Source: an uncultured Clostridia bacterium (GTDB lineage Bacteria; Bacillota; Clostridia; Oscillospirales; Acutalibacteraceae). Taken from it: a stretch of 41,695 nt of DNA. The stretch's first letter is position 1. The number at the start of each line of letters is the position of its first letter. Below, piece after piece: positions 19,887 through 24,268 of the stretch. Where the stretch lies: the NCBI GenBank assembly GCA_944380675.1, contig CALWIH010000009.1, positions 1 through 41,695 of the forward strand, read 5' to 3'. Below the pieces are notes generated by a model. It was not told the origin of the DNA. It worked only from the letters and a program-made list of their open reading frames with translations, and did no database searches. The translations under genes and the position numbers were made by a program.

Positions 19887-19915
19887 TTGAATTTATGGCG
19901 TATTTATCCTAAAAT
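19887..19915 (+). promoter_or_regulatory. SigA promoter of the purine operon
   Basis: TTGAAT (19887-19892), 17-base spacer, TAAAAT (19910-19915). Transcription should start near 19922, giving a leader of about 215 bases before purE. Confidence 0.82.
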
Positions 19916-19966
19916 GAAGAGAGAAGCTTGTCCGGCATAACCGGAGAGAGGTTGGAGGGAAGCGCG

Positions 19967-20026
19967 ATGGGCAGTTGGTTTCTGTGTCGTTCCGCAGAGC
20001 CGCATTGCGCCAATTTTTCCCCGTAA
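19967..20026 (+). CDS. Possible 19-residue leader peptide
   Basis: ATG-to-TAA frame MGSWFLCRSAEPHCANFSP with a strong GGAGGGA site (19954-19960) six bases upstream, lying inside the purE leader and ending 12 bases before the terminator stem. Ribosomes on this frame would open the inner hairpin and free the proposed antiterminator strand. It has no run of one regulatory codon, so amino-acid-type attenuation is not obvious. It may be chance. Confidence 0.35.
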   Translation: MGSWFLCRSAEPHCANFSP

Positions 20027-20038
20027 CCCGGAACGATA

Positions 20039-20083
20039 AGCAGGCTGCGCAGCAGAATATGCCGCAGCCTGCTTTCTTTTGTT
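20039..20083 (+). terminator. Intrinsic terminator in the purE leader
   Basis: Perfect 11-bp stem (20039-20049 with 20063-20073), 13-base loop, followed by TTCTTTTGTTT. It stands between the operon promoter and purE, so it must be conditional or the upstream transcript must be a separate RNA. Confidence 0.85.
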
Positions 20084-20137
20084 TCCGGCGAGGAGCGCGC
20101 GATTCCTCCCAAGACGTTTTGGAGCTGAGAAAGGAAG

Positions 20138-20641
20138 ATGTCTGTGAAAAAGGTAGCCGTCATTATGGGGAGCGACAGCGATTTTCCGGTGGTTTCCCCC
20201 GCTGTCAAGCGCCTCAAGGAGTTTGGAATCCCGGTGGAGGTGCGCGTGATGTCCGCGCACAGAACGCCTGACGCGGCCGCCGCGTTTTCCGCGAACGCCG
20301 TGAAGGACGGCTTCGGCGTCATCATCGCCGCCGCGGGCAAGGCCGCGCATCTGGCCGGCGTCCTGGCCGCCCACACCACGCTGCCCGTCATCGGCATACC
20401 GGTCAAGTCCTCCACGCTCGACGGCCTCGACGCCCTGCTCGCGACCGTCCAGATGCCGAGCGGCATCCCGGTGGCCACCGTCGCCATCGACGGCGCCGAC
20501 AACGCCGCCATCCTCGCCGCGCAGATGCTCGCGCTCTCCGACGAGGGACTCGCCGCGCAGCTCGCCGCGATGAAGAAGAGCATGGCGGAGGGCGTGGCGA
20601 AGAAAAACGCCGCCCTGCAGGAAAAGGTCGCCGCCCTCTGA
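20138..20641 (+). CDS. purE: N5-carboxyaminoimidazole ribonucleotide mutase (PurE)
   Basis: 167 residues. Class I PurE motifs: GSDSD (11-15), SAHRTP with H41, and [25 protein letters not shown]. It interconverts N5-CAIR and CAIR in de novo purine synthesis and forms an octamer. The ATG follows AAAGGAAG. It is the first gene of the purE-M-N-cyclohydrolase-transformylase-D operon. PurK, the partner of class I enzymes, is not in the window. Confidence 0.96.
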
Positions 20642-21727: not shown

Positions 21728-22350
21728 ACATTGCGGTACTCGTCTCCGGCGGCGGCACAAACCTGCAGGCGCTCATCGACGCGCAGGGCAGGGGAGAGCT
21801 CCCGAACGGGAAGCTTGCCCTCGTCCTCGCGAGCAAGCCGGGCGTCTACGCGCTCGAGCGCGCGGCGAAGGCCGGCATTCCCTCCGACGTTCTCGTCCGC
21901 CGCGATTTCCCGACGCAGGACGCGTACGACGAGGCGCTGATCGGCAGGCTCGAGGCGGCGCGCATCGATCTCATTGTGCTCGCCGGTTTTCTCACCATCA
22001 TCAGCGAAAAGGTCGTCAGCCGGTTTGAAAACAGAATCATCAACGTGCACCCGTCTCTCATCCCGTCGTTCTGCGGGGAAGGCTATTACGGGCTGCGCGT
22101 GCACGAGGAGGCGCTGCGCCGCGGCGTGAAGGTGACGGGTGCGACCGTCCACTTCGTCAACAACGTCTGCGACGGCGGCCCGATCATTCTTCAGCGCGCG
22201 GTGGAGGTGCGGGAGGGCGACACCCCCGAGCTTCTCCAGCGCCGCGTGATGGAACAGGCCGAGTGGAAGCTGCTCCCGAAGGCCGCCGCCCTCTTCTGCG
22301 AGGGCAGGCTCACCGTCGAGAGCGCGATTGTGCATATCAGGGAGGAATGA
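21721..22350 (+). CDS. purN: Phosphoribosylglycinamide formyltransferase (PurN)
   Basis: 209 residues. The start loop is [17 protein letters not shown], and the catalytic triad N108, H110, D151 is present ([19 protein letters not shown]). It transfers formyl from 10-formyl-THF to GAR. The GTG at 21721 overlaps the purM stop, with GAGGAGGG upstream inside purM, so translation is coupled. Confidence 0.95.
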
Positions 22351-22354
22351 GGAA

Positions 22355-23062
22355 ATGAACGTCAAGGAAATGAAGGCGGAGATCGCCTCCACGAGCTACC
22401 CGGGCCGCGGCATCCTGCTCGGCCGCAGCGAGGACGGGAAGAAGGCCGTCATCGCGTACTTCATCATGGGACGCAGCGCGAACAGCCGCAACCGCGTCTT
22501 CGAGGCGATGGGCGACGATCTGCGGACCCGCGCGTTCGACGAGAGCAAGATGGAGGATCCGAGCCTTGTCATCTACAACGCCGTCCGCGTGCTCGGCGAT
22601 ACGACCATTGTGACGAACGGCGACCAGACCGACACGATTTACGATTTCCTCGCCGAGGGGAAGACGTGGGAGGAGGCGCTGCGCACGCGCACCTTCGAGC
22701 CCGACGGCCCGAACTTCACCCCGCGCATCTCCGGCGTCGTCTGCAATAAGACGGGCGCGTACCGCCTCTCGATTCTCAAGAGCGACAACGGCGACGAGAC
22801 CTCCGCGCAGCGCTTCTTCTACGAGTACGCGCAGCCGAAGGCCGGCGAGGGCCATTTCATCCACACCTATATGGGCGACGGCAATCCGCTCCCGTCCTAC
22901 GAGGGAGAGCCCACGCCGGTGACGGTGCGCGGCGATCTCGCGCAGTTCACGGAGGACGTGTGGCAGTCGCTTGACCCGGAGAACAAGATTTCCCTCTTCA
23001 CCCGCTTCATCGACCTCGAGACGGGCAAGTGGGAGACGGAGATCCGCAACAAGAACCAGTAA
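22355..23062 (+). CDS. IMP cyclohydrolase (PurO-type)
   Basis: 235 residues. The N-terminus STSYPGRGILLGRSEDGKKAVIAYFIMGRSANSRNRVF and the later TNGDQTDTIYDFL fit the archaeal-type PurO IMP cyclohydrolase family, unrelated to the N-terminal domain of bifunctional PurH. It would close the ring of FAICAR to IMP. It lies directly before a stand-alone AICAR transformylase, so the pair replaces bifunctional PurH. The ATG follows GGAGGAATGAGGA, four bases after the purN stop. Confidence 0.9.
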   Translation: MNVKEMKAEIASTSYPGRGILLGRSEDGKKAVIAYFIMGRSANSRNRVFEAMGDDLRTRAFDESKMEDPSLVIYNAVRVLGDTTIVTNGDQTDTIYDFLAEGKTWEEALRTRTFEPDGPNFTPRISGVVCNKTGAYRLSILKSDNGDETSAQRFFYEYAQPKAGEGHFIHTYMGDGNPLPSYEGEPTPVTVRGDLAQFTEDVWQSLDPENKISLFTRFIDLETGKWETEIRNKNQ

Positions 23063-23089
23063 GCGAACGACAGGATGGAGGAATGCAGG

Positions 23090-24268
23090 ATGTCTCAGGA
23101 ACTGATGCTCAAATACGGATGCAACCCCAACCAGAAGCCTTCCCGGATTTTCATGCAGGACGGGTCCGAGCTGCCGATTGAGGTGCTCAACGGCCGCCCC
23201 GGCTATATCAACTTTCTCGACGCCTTCAACAGCTGGCAGCTCGTCCGCGAGCTCAAGGAGGCCACCGGCCTGCCCGCCGCGGCGTCCTTCAAGCACGTCA
23301 GCCCGGCCGGCGCCGCCGTGGCCGTGCCGATGAGCGACACGCTCAAGAAGATCTACTTCGTCGACGACCTCGAGCTCTCGCCGATCGCGACGGCCTACGC
23401 CCGCGCCCGCGGCGCGGACCGGATGTCCTCCTACGGCGACTGGGTCGCCCTCTCCGACGTCTGTGACAAGGAGACGGCCACCCTCCTCGCGCGCGAGGTG
23501 TCTGACGGCATCATCGCCCCCGGCTACACGGACGAGGCGCTCGCCATCCTCAAGACAAAGCGCAAGGGCTCCTACAACGTCGTGAAGATCGACCCCGACT
23601 ACCGCCCCGCTCCGGTGGAGCATAAGGACGTGTTCGGCGTCACCTTCGAGCAGGGCCGCAACGAGCTTAAAATCGACGAGGCGCTGCTCCAGAACATCGT
23701 GACGGAGAACAAGGAGCTGCCCGAGGACGCGAAGCGCGACCTCATCATCTCCCTGATTGCCCTCAAGTACACGCAGTCCAACTCCGTCTGCTACGCGAAG
23801 GACGGGCAGGCCATCGGCATCGGCGCGGGTCAGCAGAGCCGCATCCACTGCACCCGCCTCGCCGGCAACAAGGCCGACGTCTGGTACCTGCGCCAGCATC
23901 CGAAGGTGCTCGGCCTCAAGTTCAAGGAGGGCATCCGCCGCCCCGACCGCGACAACACGATCGACGTCTACATCTCTGACGAGTACATGGACGTCCTCGC
24001 CGACGGCGCGTGGGAGCAGTTCTTCGCCGAGAAGCCCGAGCCGCTGACCCGCGAGGAGAAGCGCGCCTGGCTCGACACGATGACGGGCGTCTCCCTCGGC
24101 TCTGACGCCTTCTTCCCGTTCGGCGACAACATCGAGCGCGCCCGCAAGAGCGGCGTGCAGTATGTGGCGGAGCCGGGCGGCTCCATCCGCGACGACAACG
24201 TTATCGAGACCTGCAACAAATACGGCATGGCCATGGCCTTCATCGGCCTGCGCCTGTTCCACCACTGA
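23090..24268 (+). CDS. AICAR transformylase (stand-alone PurH C-terminal domain)
   Basis: 392 residues, matching only the formyltransferase half of bifunctional PurH. The KYGCNPNQKPSRIF start and the catalytic Lys-His pair (K68, H69 in SFKHVSPAG) are present, with SDAFFPFGDNIERA and the terminal FIGLRLFHH. It makes FAICAR from AICAR and 10-formyl-THF. ATG 23090 is preferred because GGAGGA lies 7 bases upstream; ATG 23075 would precede that site. Confidence 0.94.
   Translation: MSQELMLKYGCNPNQKPSRIFMQDGSELPIEVLNGRPGYINFLDAFNSWQLVRELKEATGLPAAASFKHVSPAGAAVAVPMSDTLKKIYFVDDLELSPIATAYARARGADRMSSYGDWVALSDVCDKETATLLAREVSDGIIAPGYTDEALAILKTKRKGSYNVVKIDPDYRPAPVEHKDVFGVTFEQGRNELKIDEALLQNIVTENKELPEDAKRDLIISLIALKYTQSNSVCYAKDGQAIGIGAGQQSRIHCTRLAGNKADVWYLRQHPKVLGLKFKEGIRRPDRDNTIDVYISDEYMDVLADGAWEQFFAEKPEPLTREEKRAWLDTMTGVSLGSDAFFPFGDNIERARKSGVQYVAEPGGSIRDDNVIETCNKYGMAMAFIGLRLFHH

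What the first reader, a model, noticed from the sequence alone, without database searches (positions are those of the whole stretch)
19887..20137. Conditional terminator and competing RNA structure in the purE operon leader
A clear promoter is followed by about 160 nt that can fold into a closed multi-stem structure ending in a perfect terminator, all ahead of purE. The strand 19993-20001 can pair either with 19977-19986 (inner hairpin) or with the terminator arm 20043-20049, a classic switch layout. I cannot match it to the guanine, ZTP, PRPP, SAM or THF riboswitch cores. It may be an undescribed purine-responsive element, or a free-standing small RNA of 6S-like shape.
Basis: partly seen in the sequence, partly recalled or inferred. 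Interest (0 to 1): 0.7.

Follow-up and report, generated by a model that had tools for sequence, protein, structure and literature searches.

The report
Leader-peptide switch controlling purine genes
Ahead of a purine-making operon, this gut bacterium and many relatives carry a tiny gene that ends just before a transcription stop signal, so a ribosome on the tiny gene probably decides whether the purine genes are read.

Summary
The promoter, about 160-nt leader and strong terminator ahead of purE are real. In relatives' purE leaders, starts chosen blind to their stops end near the terminator in 40 of 48 (frame 0) against 4 and 5 in the other frames. In 618 kb around purE in 80 named contigs, 18 of 19 sites with this layout lie just upstream of purE. 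The peptide is weakly constrained, shows no codon-specific enrichment, and no antiterminator pairing is conserved. Of 25 sampled genomes none showed Bacillus-type PurR over cut-off or a purine riboswitch. Best reading: a ribosome-mediated attenuator of pyrBI/pyrE type on purine synthesis: slow polymerase lets the ribosome close in, block the hairpin and turn purE on. The terminator 5' arm carries TG[C/T]G in 40 of 54 leaders (79 of 444 background sites), resembling a pause whose escape needs GTP; that would make it a GTP gauge. Regulation itself is untested. Not 6S RNA; no Rfam family.

The parts
19887..19915 (+). promoter: -35 TTGAAT (19887-19892), 17-nt spacer, -10 TAAAAT (19910-19915); transcript expected to start near 19922
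   Evidence: promoter-like site of 9 of 12 or better upstream of the uORF start in 40 of 54 leaders vs a fraction of 0.27 in mononucleotide shuffles
19931..19945 (+). small 5' hairpin of the leader (TCCGG/CCGGA)
   Evidence: fold; mostly gaps in the alignment, so not tested
19954..19959 (+). Shine-Dalgarno GGAGGG of the uORF
   Evidence: sequence; -9.8 kcal/mol with the anti-SD
19967..20026 (+). upstream ORF (leader peptide) ATG...TAA, MGSWFLCRSAEPHCANFSP*
19962..20010 (+). hairpin within the uORF that would cover its start codon when not translated (GCGCGATG/CATTGCGC)
   Evidence: fold; nearly invariant in the 2 distinct genus relatives aligned, so no covariation test
20027..20039 (+). 13-nt spacer between uORF stop and terminator stem
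   Evidence: sequence; stop end lies between 8 nt before and 1 nt into the stem in 44 of 54 leaders (which admitted only -20..+3)
20040..20081 (+). intrinsic terminator: stem 20040-20049/20063-20072, U tract 20073-20081
20046..20049 (+). TGCG in the terminator 5' arm: pause-like TG[C/T]G element, next nucleotide G
   Evidence: TGYG in 5' arm 40 of 54 leaders vs 79 of 444 background terminator-like sites
20130..20137 (+). Shine-Dalgarno of purE (AAAGGAAG)
   Evidence: sequence
20138..20641 (+). purE, first gene of the controlled operon
   Evidence: TIGR01162
20687..26975 (+). downstream genes: purM, purN, PurO-like IMP cyclohydrolase (below cut-off), stand-alone AICAR formyltransferase, purD, glyA; one operon is inferred from spacing and order
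   Evidence: NCBIfam

Best explanation
The leader is a ribosome-mediated transcription attenuator of the purE operon. RNA polymerase starts near 19922 and makes a short leader with a translated 19-codon uORF that ends just before an intrinsic terminator. If no ribosome is close behind, the hairpin forms and transcription stops (off). If polymerase is slowed, the ribosome closes in, sits at or near the stop codon and keeps the 5' arm from folding, so polymerase reads into purE (on). The signal is most likely purine nucleotide supply acting on polymerase speed: a pause-like TG[C/T]G in the terminator 5' arm needs GTP to escape, so low GTP gives a longer pause, a closer ribosome and readthrough. 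Shown by comparison: the uORF, its placement, its tie to purE, the TGYG enrichment. Inferred: that ribosome position controls termination here, that GTP (or ATP) is the signal, and the on/off polarity. I hold the uORF-attenuator part at about 0.9 and the nucleotide-sensing coupling mechanism at about 0.5.
For: Blind frame test: best Shine-Dalgarno start chosen without regard to its stop; stop end within -12..+18 nt of the terminator stem in 52 of 64 (frame 0), 5 of 64 (+1), 8 of 64 (+2); after dropping 9 whose open frame exceeds 60 codons and 7 near-duplicates, 40, 4 and 5 of 48. Context test: 1512 terminator-like sites in the 80 named purE loci (618,134 nt), 19 with the layout, 18 directly ahead of purE. 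65 of 175 distinct leaders pass a stricter layout filter, 54 nonredundant, peptides 17-42 aa, about two dozen genus labels by my count. Substitutions in 11 gap-free close pairs (of 13; 2 with gaps not counted, 14 codons with several changes set aside): 29 synonymous, 35 nonsynonymous, where 23% synonymous is expected without selection on the peptide; pairs overlap. -10 end to uORF start 29-35 nt in 24 of the 40 leaders with a promoter hit. TGYG in the 5' arm 40 of 54 vs 79 of 444 (Fisher p 1e-16); in the 21 stems without GGCTG, TGYG in 11 and TGYR in 18; control CRCA 6 of 54 vs 47 of 444. Stop end to the pause nucleotide is 12-14 nt in 20 of those 40. Spacer A-rich, 0.49-0.50 A vs 0.26-0.30. 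No PurR over cut-off and no purine riboswitch in 25 of 25 genomes. Published: an E. coli terminator a few nt after a stop codon is almost fully repressed by ribosomes, repression vanishes on uncoupling, and ribosomes are unlikely to catch polymerase in the first 100 bp unless it pauses (PMC4824070, abstract and passages). Escape from the consensus elemental pause (RNA ending U-G-C) needs GTP (PMC6336406, passages).
Against: No expression data. The strict layout was found in 65 of 175 distinct leaders only; 69 of the 133 leaders with a terminator have no start reaching the strong Shine-Dalgarno limit. It is missing in same-genus G003, which keeps promoter and terminator. In the window the stop-to-stem spacer is 13 nt and the stop-to-pause distance 22 nt, at the long end, so a ribosome on the stop codon would only just reach the stem. 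Only the 3' half of the pause consensus matches; the upstream GG (recalled) is not at the right place. The background for the TGYG test is mechanical terminator-like sites, many inside genes and unproven, and the leaders are related, so shared ancestry of the stem could explain part of the enrichment. A NusG-type TTNTTT motif (recalled) is not enriched (26 vs 23.0 in codon shuffles). In B. subtilis polymerase outruns the ribosome (stated in PMC9226507, passage); coupling in this family is unknown. pyrB (20 loci), purA (19) and purF (20) loci do not show the layout ahead of those genes; some lie at contig edges or inside operons, so their true leaders were not always in view.
Confidence: 0.55

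Rival explanations
1. Same uORF attenuator, but it gauges translation initiation capacity, for example fMet-tRNA and hence 10-formyl-tetrahydrofolate (used twice in purine synthesis; purN, AICAR formyltransferase and glyA follow purE), or general translation activity, rather than polymerase speed.
For: Translation and stop position appear conserved more than the peptide. A uORF with terminator ahead of streptococcal fthC was proposed to sense initiator tRNA (PMC11109978, passages). Gene content.
Against: Polarity would shut purE off when one-carbon units are short; does not explain the TGYG enrichment in the stem.
Confidence: 0.17
2. A protein binds the common GGCTG[C/T]G hairpin and controls termination; the uORF is secondary.
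For: GGCTGYR in 27 of 54 leader terminators vs 13 of 419 background sites.
Against: Does not explain why the frame-0 stop lies at the hairpin foot; 21 of 54 layout leaders have stems without GGCTG.
Confidence: 0.08
3. Codon-specific attenuator (trp/his type) or arrest peptide that senses an amino acid or metabolite through the nascent chain.
For: Cys present in 47 of 54 peptides; mild purifying selection.
Against: No residue stands out strongly against the other two frames (Cys 6.4% vs 4.7/4.9%, Phe 8.4 vs 8.2/9.5; Thr 6.2 vs 3.7/2.1 is the largest rise among common residues); peptides differ widely between leaders; no antiterminator.
Confidence: 0.08
4. Undescribed purine riboswitch with competing RNA structures.
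For: Window leader folds better than shuffles; uORF hairpin invariant in the genus sequences compared; pre-terminator leaders fold slightly better than shuffles (mean z -1.17, 10 of 54 below -2).
Against: No Rfam match (0 of 40 relatives' leaders); no conserved antiterminator; outer helix broken in a relative; DNA similarity found only within the genus in the genomes searched while the coding layout spans the family.
Confidence: 0.04
5. Free-standing small RNA of 6S shape.
For: Promoter and terminator frame about 160 nt.
Against: 6S RNA found elsewhere in the genome; no RF00013 match here; translated uORF.
Confidence: 0.01

Closest known systems
E. coli pyrBI leader attenuator (UTP-sensing, transcription-translation coupling; described in passages of PMC4824070 and PMC3641672, otherwise recalled)
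   Same: short translated leader, intrinsic terminator, nucleotide biosynthesis operon, peptide sequence not the signal
   Different: senses UTP by U-tract pausing; the terminator lies inside the leader frame; here the target is purine synthesis, the frame ends just before the terminator, and the candidate pause needs GTP
E. coli rph-pyrE attenuator (recalled)
   Same: upstream frame ends a few nt before a GC-rich terminator; ribosome near the stop codon prevents termination
   Different: the upstream frame is a full gene, the signal UTP, the target pyrimidine synthesis
Salmonella mgtCBR leader, ATP-sensing mgtM uORF (PMC3641672, passages)
   Same: uORF attenuator proposed to read a purine nucleotide through polymerase/ribosome coupling; peptide not conserved
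   Different: conserved adenines rather than TGYG; alternative stem-loops, no intrinsic terminator; high ATP turns it on; virulence/Mg operon
Streptococcus fthC uORF motif (PMC11109978, passages)
   Same: uORF followed by a terminator-like stem in a Firmicute, one-carbon gene downstream
   Different: three-hairpin structure, fthC not purE, Streptococcus only
Weak riboswitch candidate ahead of an FGAM synthase operon (PMC11109978, passage)
   Same: candidate RNA control of a purine synthesis operon
   Different: an RNA motif with a possible anti-SD, not a uORF attenuator; FGAM synthase, not purE; not compared here by sequence

Membership tests
ribosome-mediated (leader-peptide) transcription attenuator | translated short ORF between promoter and structural gene | tested here: met
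   by comparison; no protein or ribosome data
ribosome-mediated (leader-peptide) transcription attenuator | intrinsic terminator within reach of a ribosome on the ORF | tested here: met
   window spacer 13 nt, at the long end
ribosome-mediated (leader-peptide) transcription attenuator | termination depends on leader translation | not testable with these tools
   needs reporter or in vitro work
pyrBI/pyrE-type nucleotide-sensing coupling | no codon-specific runs, no conserved antiterminator | tested here: met
pyrBI/pyrE-type nucleotide-sensing coupling | nucleotide-dependent polymerase pause before the terminator is complete | tested here: inconclusive
   TGYG enriched 40 of 54 vs 79 of 444; TTNTTT not enriched; pausing itself not measured
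trp/his-type codon-specific attenuator | runs of a regulatory codon and alternative antiterminator structure | tested here: not met
known riboswitches (Rfam 15) | covariance-model match over gathering score | tested here: not met
   (window); 0 of 40 relatives' leaders (L116-L155 only, of 175 distinct leaders)
6S RNA (RF00013) | match to the 6S covariance model | tested here: not met
   no match at the leader; genomic 6S at G000:C44
Bacillus PurR regulon | PurR over curated cut-off in the genome | tested here: not met
   0 of 25 over cut-off; 25 of 25 have weak matches, best 63.6 bits vs 258.7, listed stretches starting at profile position 80 or later

The most novel reading that the evidence does not exclude
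A GTP gauge made of RNA polymerase and a ribosome: a TG[C/T]G pause in the terminator 5' arm (40 of 54 leaders; 12-14 nt after the uORF stop in 20 of those 40) lengthens when GTP is low, lets the leader ribosome close in, blocks the terminator and switches on purine synthesis. It would be a purine counterpart of the pyrBI attenuator, in bacteria where neither PurR nor a purine riboswitch was found.
Probability: 0.35. Interest if true: 0.75.

Novelty: new variant of a known kind. Interest (0 to 1): 0.62.

Why it matters
Purine synthesis in well-studied Firmicutes is controlled by PurR or purine riboswitches (recalled); 25 sampled genomes of this family showed neither, and here is a candidate replacement seen under about two dozen genus labels. 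If the coupling model holds, it extends nucleotide-sensing attenuation from pyrimidine to purine synthesis and to these Firmicutes, and would indicate that transcription and translation can be coupled in short leaders of Clostridia, an open question given uncoupling in B. subtilis (PMC9226507, passage). It looks testable in isolates such as Caproiciproducens galactitolivorans BS-1 (L082) or Anaeromassilibacillus sp. An200 (L037), both of which carry the layout.

Tried and rejected
Rfam at gathering and at E up to 10 (only a microRNA model, E 0.62). Own-genome 6S check. DNA-level search for the leader: matches in 4 of 6 genus genomes including the window's own and 1 of 150 family genomes, the window's own (where at most 5 candidates a genome were scored in the rows shown), so the leader could not be followed by sequence; the uORF layout was followed instead. 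Antiterminator pairing to the 5' arm: mean z 0.06, 2 of 54 at p<=0.05; to the 3' arm mean z -0.34. Codon-specific sensing: rejected. TTNTTT pausing: 26 observed vs 23.0 in codon shuffles, reached in 157 of 500. Same layout ahead of pyrB, purA or purF: not seen. In the 41 loci, four other sites passed a looser filter and look like chance; in the 20 purF loci, five hits, of which L255 is again the purE leader of G023 and the other four look like chance; some of these genes sit at contig edges or inside operons. Order level: 13 of 64 purE leaders pass a looser Shine-Dalgarno limit (-6.5), at least one (L258, G025) from the same family; no shuffle control was run there, and those from other families often lack TGYG, so breadth beyond the family is uncertain. 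Among 68 purE leaders with a terminator but outside the strict layout set, 19 have TGYG (layout vs these: Fisher p 5.5e-7); L017, L018, L093 and L130 among them do have a uORF that my open-frame filter dropped, so 65 of 175 is probably an undercount. On the other side, some of the 52 are ends of longer open frames (L038 at least looks like the end of an upstream gene); removes these and near-duplicates. The nonredundant set admits weak Shine-Dalgarno sites (-5 or better), so it may hold a few false members. Searches drew their background from the first and second 40 of the 80 named loci. Many genomes had only 103 candidates scored, so the riboswitch absence is not exhaustive; ZTP, PRPP and other purine-related riboswitches were not searched genome-wide. 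Not all 25 genomes carry the layout. Literature: of ten searches six aimed at purine leaders or purine control; the listings I saw (capped; two returned none) showed no report of a leader peptide or uORF ahead of purE. Subscription journals are mostly missing from the library.

Full report
The finding. The promoter (TTGAAT-17-TAAAAT, 19887-19915), the fold of the leader (z -4.05) and the terminator (-26.4 kcal/mol, z -4.75) are there; without the terminator the fold is only moderately better than shuffles (z -2.17). The gene downstream is purE (193.3 bits), followed by purM, purN, a PurO-like gene, a stand-alone AICAR formyltransferase, purD and glyA. No Rfam family matches.

What was missed. 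Reading purE upstream regions of relatives (partly cut) showed a recurring pattern: promoter, GGAGG-type Shine-Dalgarno, a short ORF, its stop codon, then a GC-rich terminator, then purE. In the window this is GGAGGG 19954-19959, ATG 19967 to TAA 20026 (MGSWFLCRSAEPHCANFSP*), spacer of 13 nt, stem 20040-20049/20063-20072, U tract 20073-20081.

Is it more than chance? I collected 193 purE upstream regions, 175 distinct and long enough; 133 had a terminator in the searched range. In each, the start with the best Shine-Dalgarno upstream of the terminator was chosen without looking at its stop. For 64 with a strong site (-8.5 kcal/mol or better; the other 69 had none), the frame-0 stop fell within -12..+18 nt of the stem in 52, against 5 and 8 in the two other frames. 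Because ends of upstream genes could mimic this, one search dropped 9 with open frames over 60 codons and 7 near-duplicates: 40, 4 and 5 of 48. As a second test I scanned both strands of all 80 named loci (618,134 nt, each around a purE gene; 1512 terminator-like sites): 19 sites had the full layout and 18 of those were immediately ahead of purE. The window has one such site, this one. Translation is also supported by substitutions: 29 synonymous and 35 nonsynonymous single changes in 11 gap-free close pairs, where about 23% synonymous would be expected (pairs are not independent, 14 codons with several changes set aside).

What it is not. Relatives' leaders show no Rfam match (0 of 40 given). 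The genome's 6S RNA lies elsewhere. Across 54 nonredundant leaders, pairing of the leader with the terminator 5' arm is no better than in shuffles; their pre-terminator parts fold slightly better than shuffles (mean z -1.17), 10 of 54 below -2. No amino acid stands out strongly against the other frames of the same DNA, so a trp- or his-like codon sensor is unlikely; peptides differ widely, so a conserved arrest peptide is unlikely.

How it probably works. What is conserved is that a ribosome starts early (-10 end to ATG 29-35 nt in 24 of 40 leaders with a promoter hit, 51 in the window) and stops right at the terminator. Published measurements in E. coli show that a terminator a few nucleotides beyond a stop codon is almost fully repressed, that uncoupling translation abolishes this, and that ribosomes are unlikely to catch polymerase in the first 100 bp without pausing (PMC4824070, abstract and passages). 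So something should slow polymerase in this short leader (ATG to stem 59-131 nt). The terminator 5' arm contains TG[C/T]G in 40 of 54 leaders against 79 of 444 other terminator-like sites, and TG[C/T][A/G] in 47 of 54 against 120 of 444; stems without the common GGCTG core still show it (11 and 18 of 21); the reverse-complement control is equal (6 of 54, 47 of 444). The pause nucleotide would lie 12-14 nt after the stop in 20 of the 40. The consensus elemental pause studied in vitro ends U-G-C and needs GTP to escape (PMC6336406, passages). A pause whose length depends on GTP, ahead of purine genes, suggests a direct gauge. This last step is inference: the window's own stop-to-pause distance is longer (22 nt), only half the pause consensus fits, the background sites are mechanical, and the stems may owe part of their likeness to common descent.

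Context. The layout was not found ahead of pyrB, purA or purF in 20, 19 and 20 loci, some at contig edges or inside operons. It is not universal: 65 of 175 distinct leaders by strict criteria (probably an undercount), and same-genus G003 retains promoter and terminator without a clear uORF.

Known relatives in mechanism. Closest are the pyrBI and pyrE attenuators (partly recalled) and the ATP-sensing mgtM uORF (PMC3641672, passages). uORF candidates ahead of other genes, and a weak riboswitch candidate ahead of an FGAM synthase operon, are reported by genome surveys (PMC6429828, PMC8632094, PMC11109978, passages); in those passages I saw none ahead of purE. The reading is therefore a new variant of a known kind.

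Noticed in passing
window 22328-24268: The purH function is split: a weak PurO-like (archaeal-type) IMP cyclohydrolase match (56.8 bits, below cut-off) followed by a stand-alone AICAR formyltransferase (PRK07106 type, 748 bits).
   Followed up: no
L004 1000-1700 (genome G003, same genus): This relative keeps the promoter and the GCAGGCTGCG terminator ahead of purE but has no clear uORF; it carries instead an upstream GGCAGGCTGCAG resembling the terminator 5' arm.
   Followed up: partly
L028/L096 upstream of purE: A leader with a good GGAGGG site and the GGCTGCG terminator but no recognisable ORF between them; possible decayed or shortened attenuator.
   Followed up: no
window 19962-20010: Within the genus, the uORF sequence itself can pair over its own start codon (GCGCGATG with CATTGCGC); nearly invariant in the sequences compared, so its role cannot be judged from variation.
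   Followed up: partly
L095, L097, L112 (Herbinix and a Bacillota MAG): A different shared purE leader block (about ACACAAATTAAC ... GTAAGCCGATATCTTGGGAG) with a terminator, read by eye; not checked against Rfam.
   Followed up: no
G006, G023, G025, G033, G152, G155, G218: These genomes have two purF matches over the curated cut-off (G023 three); in all but G006 one lies next to purE.
   Followed up: no
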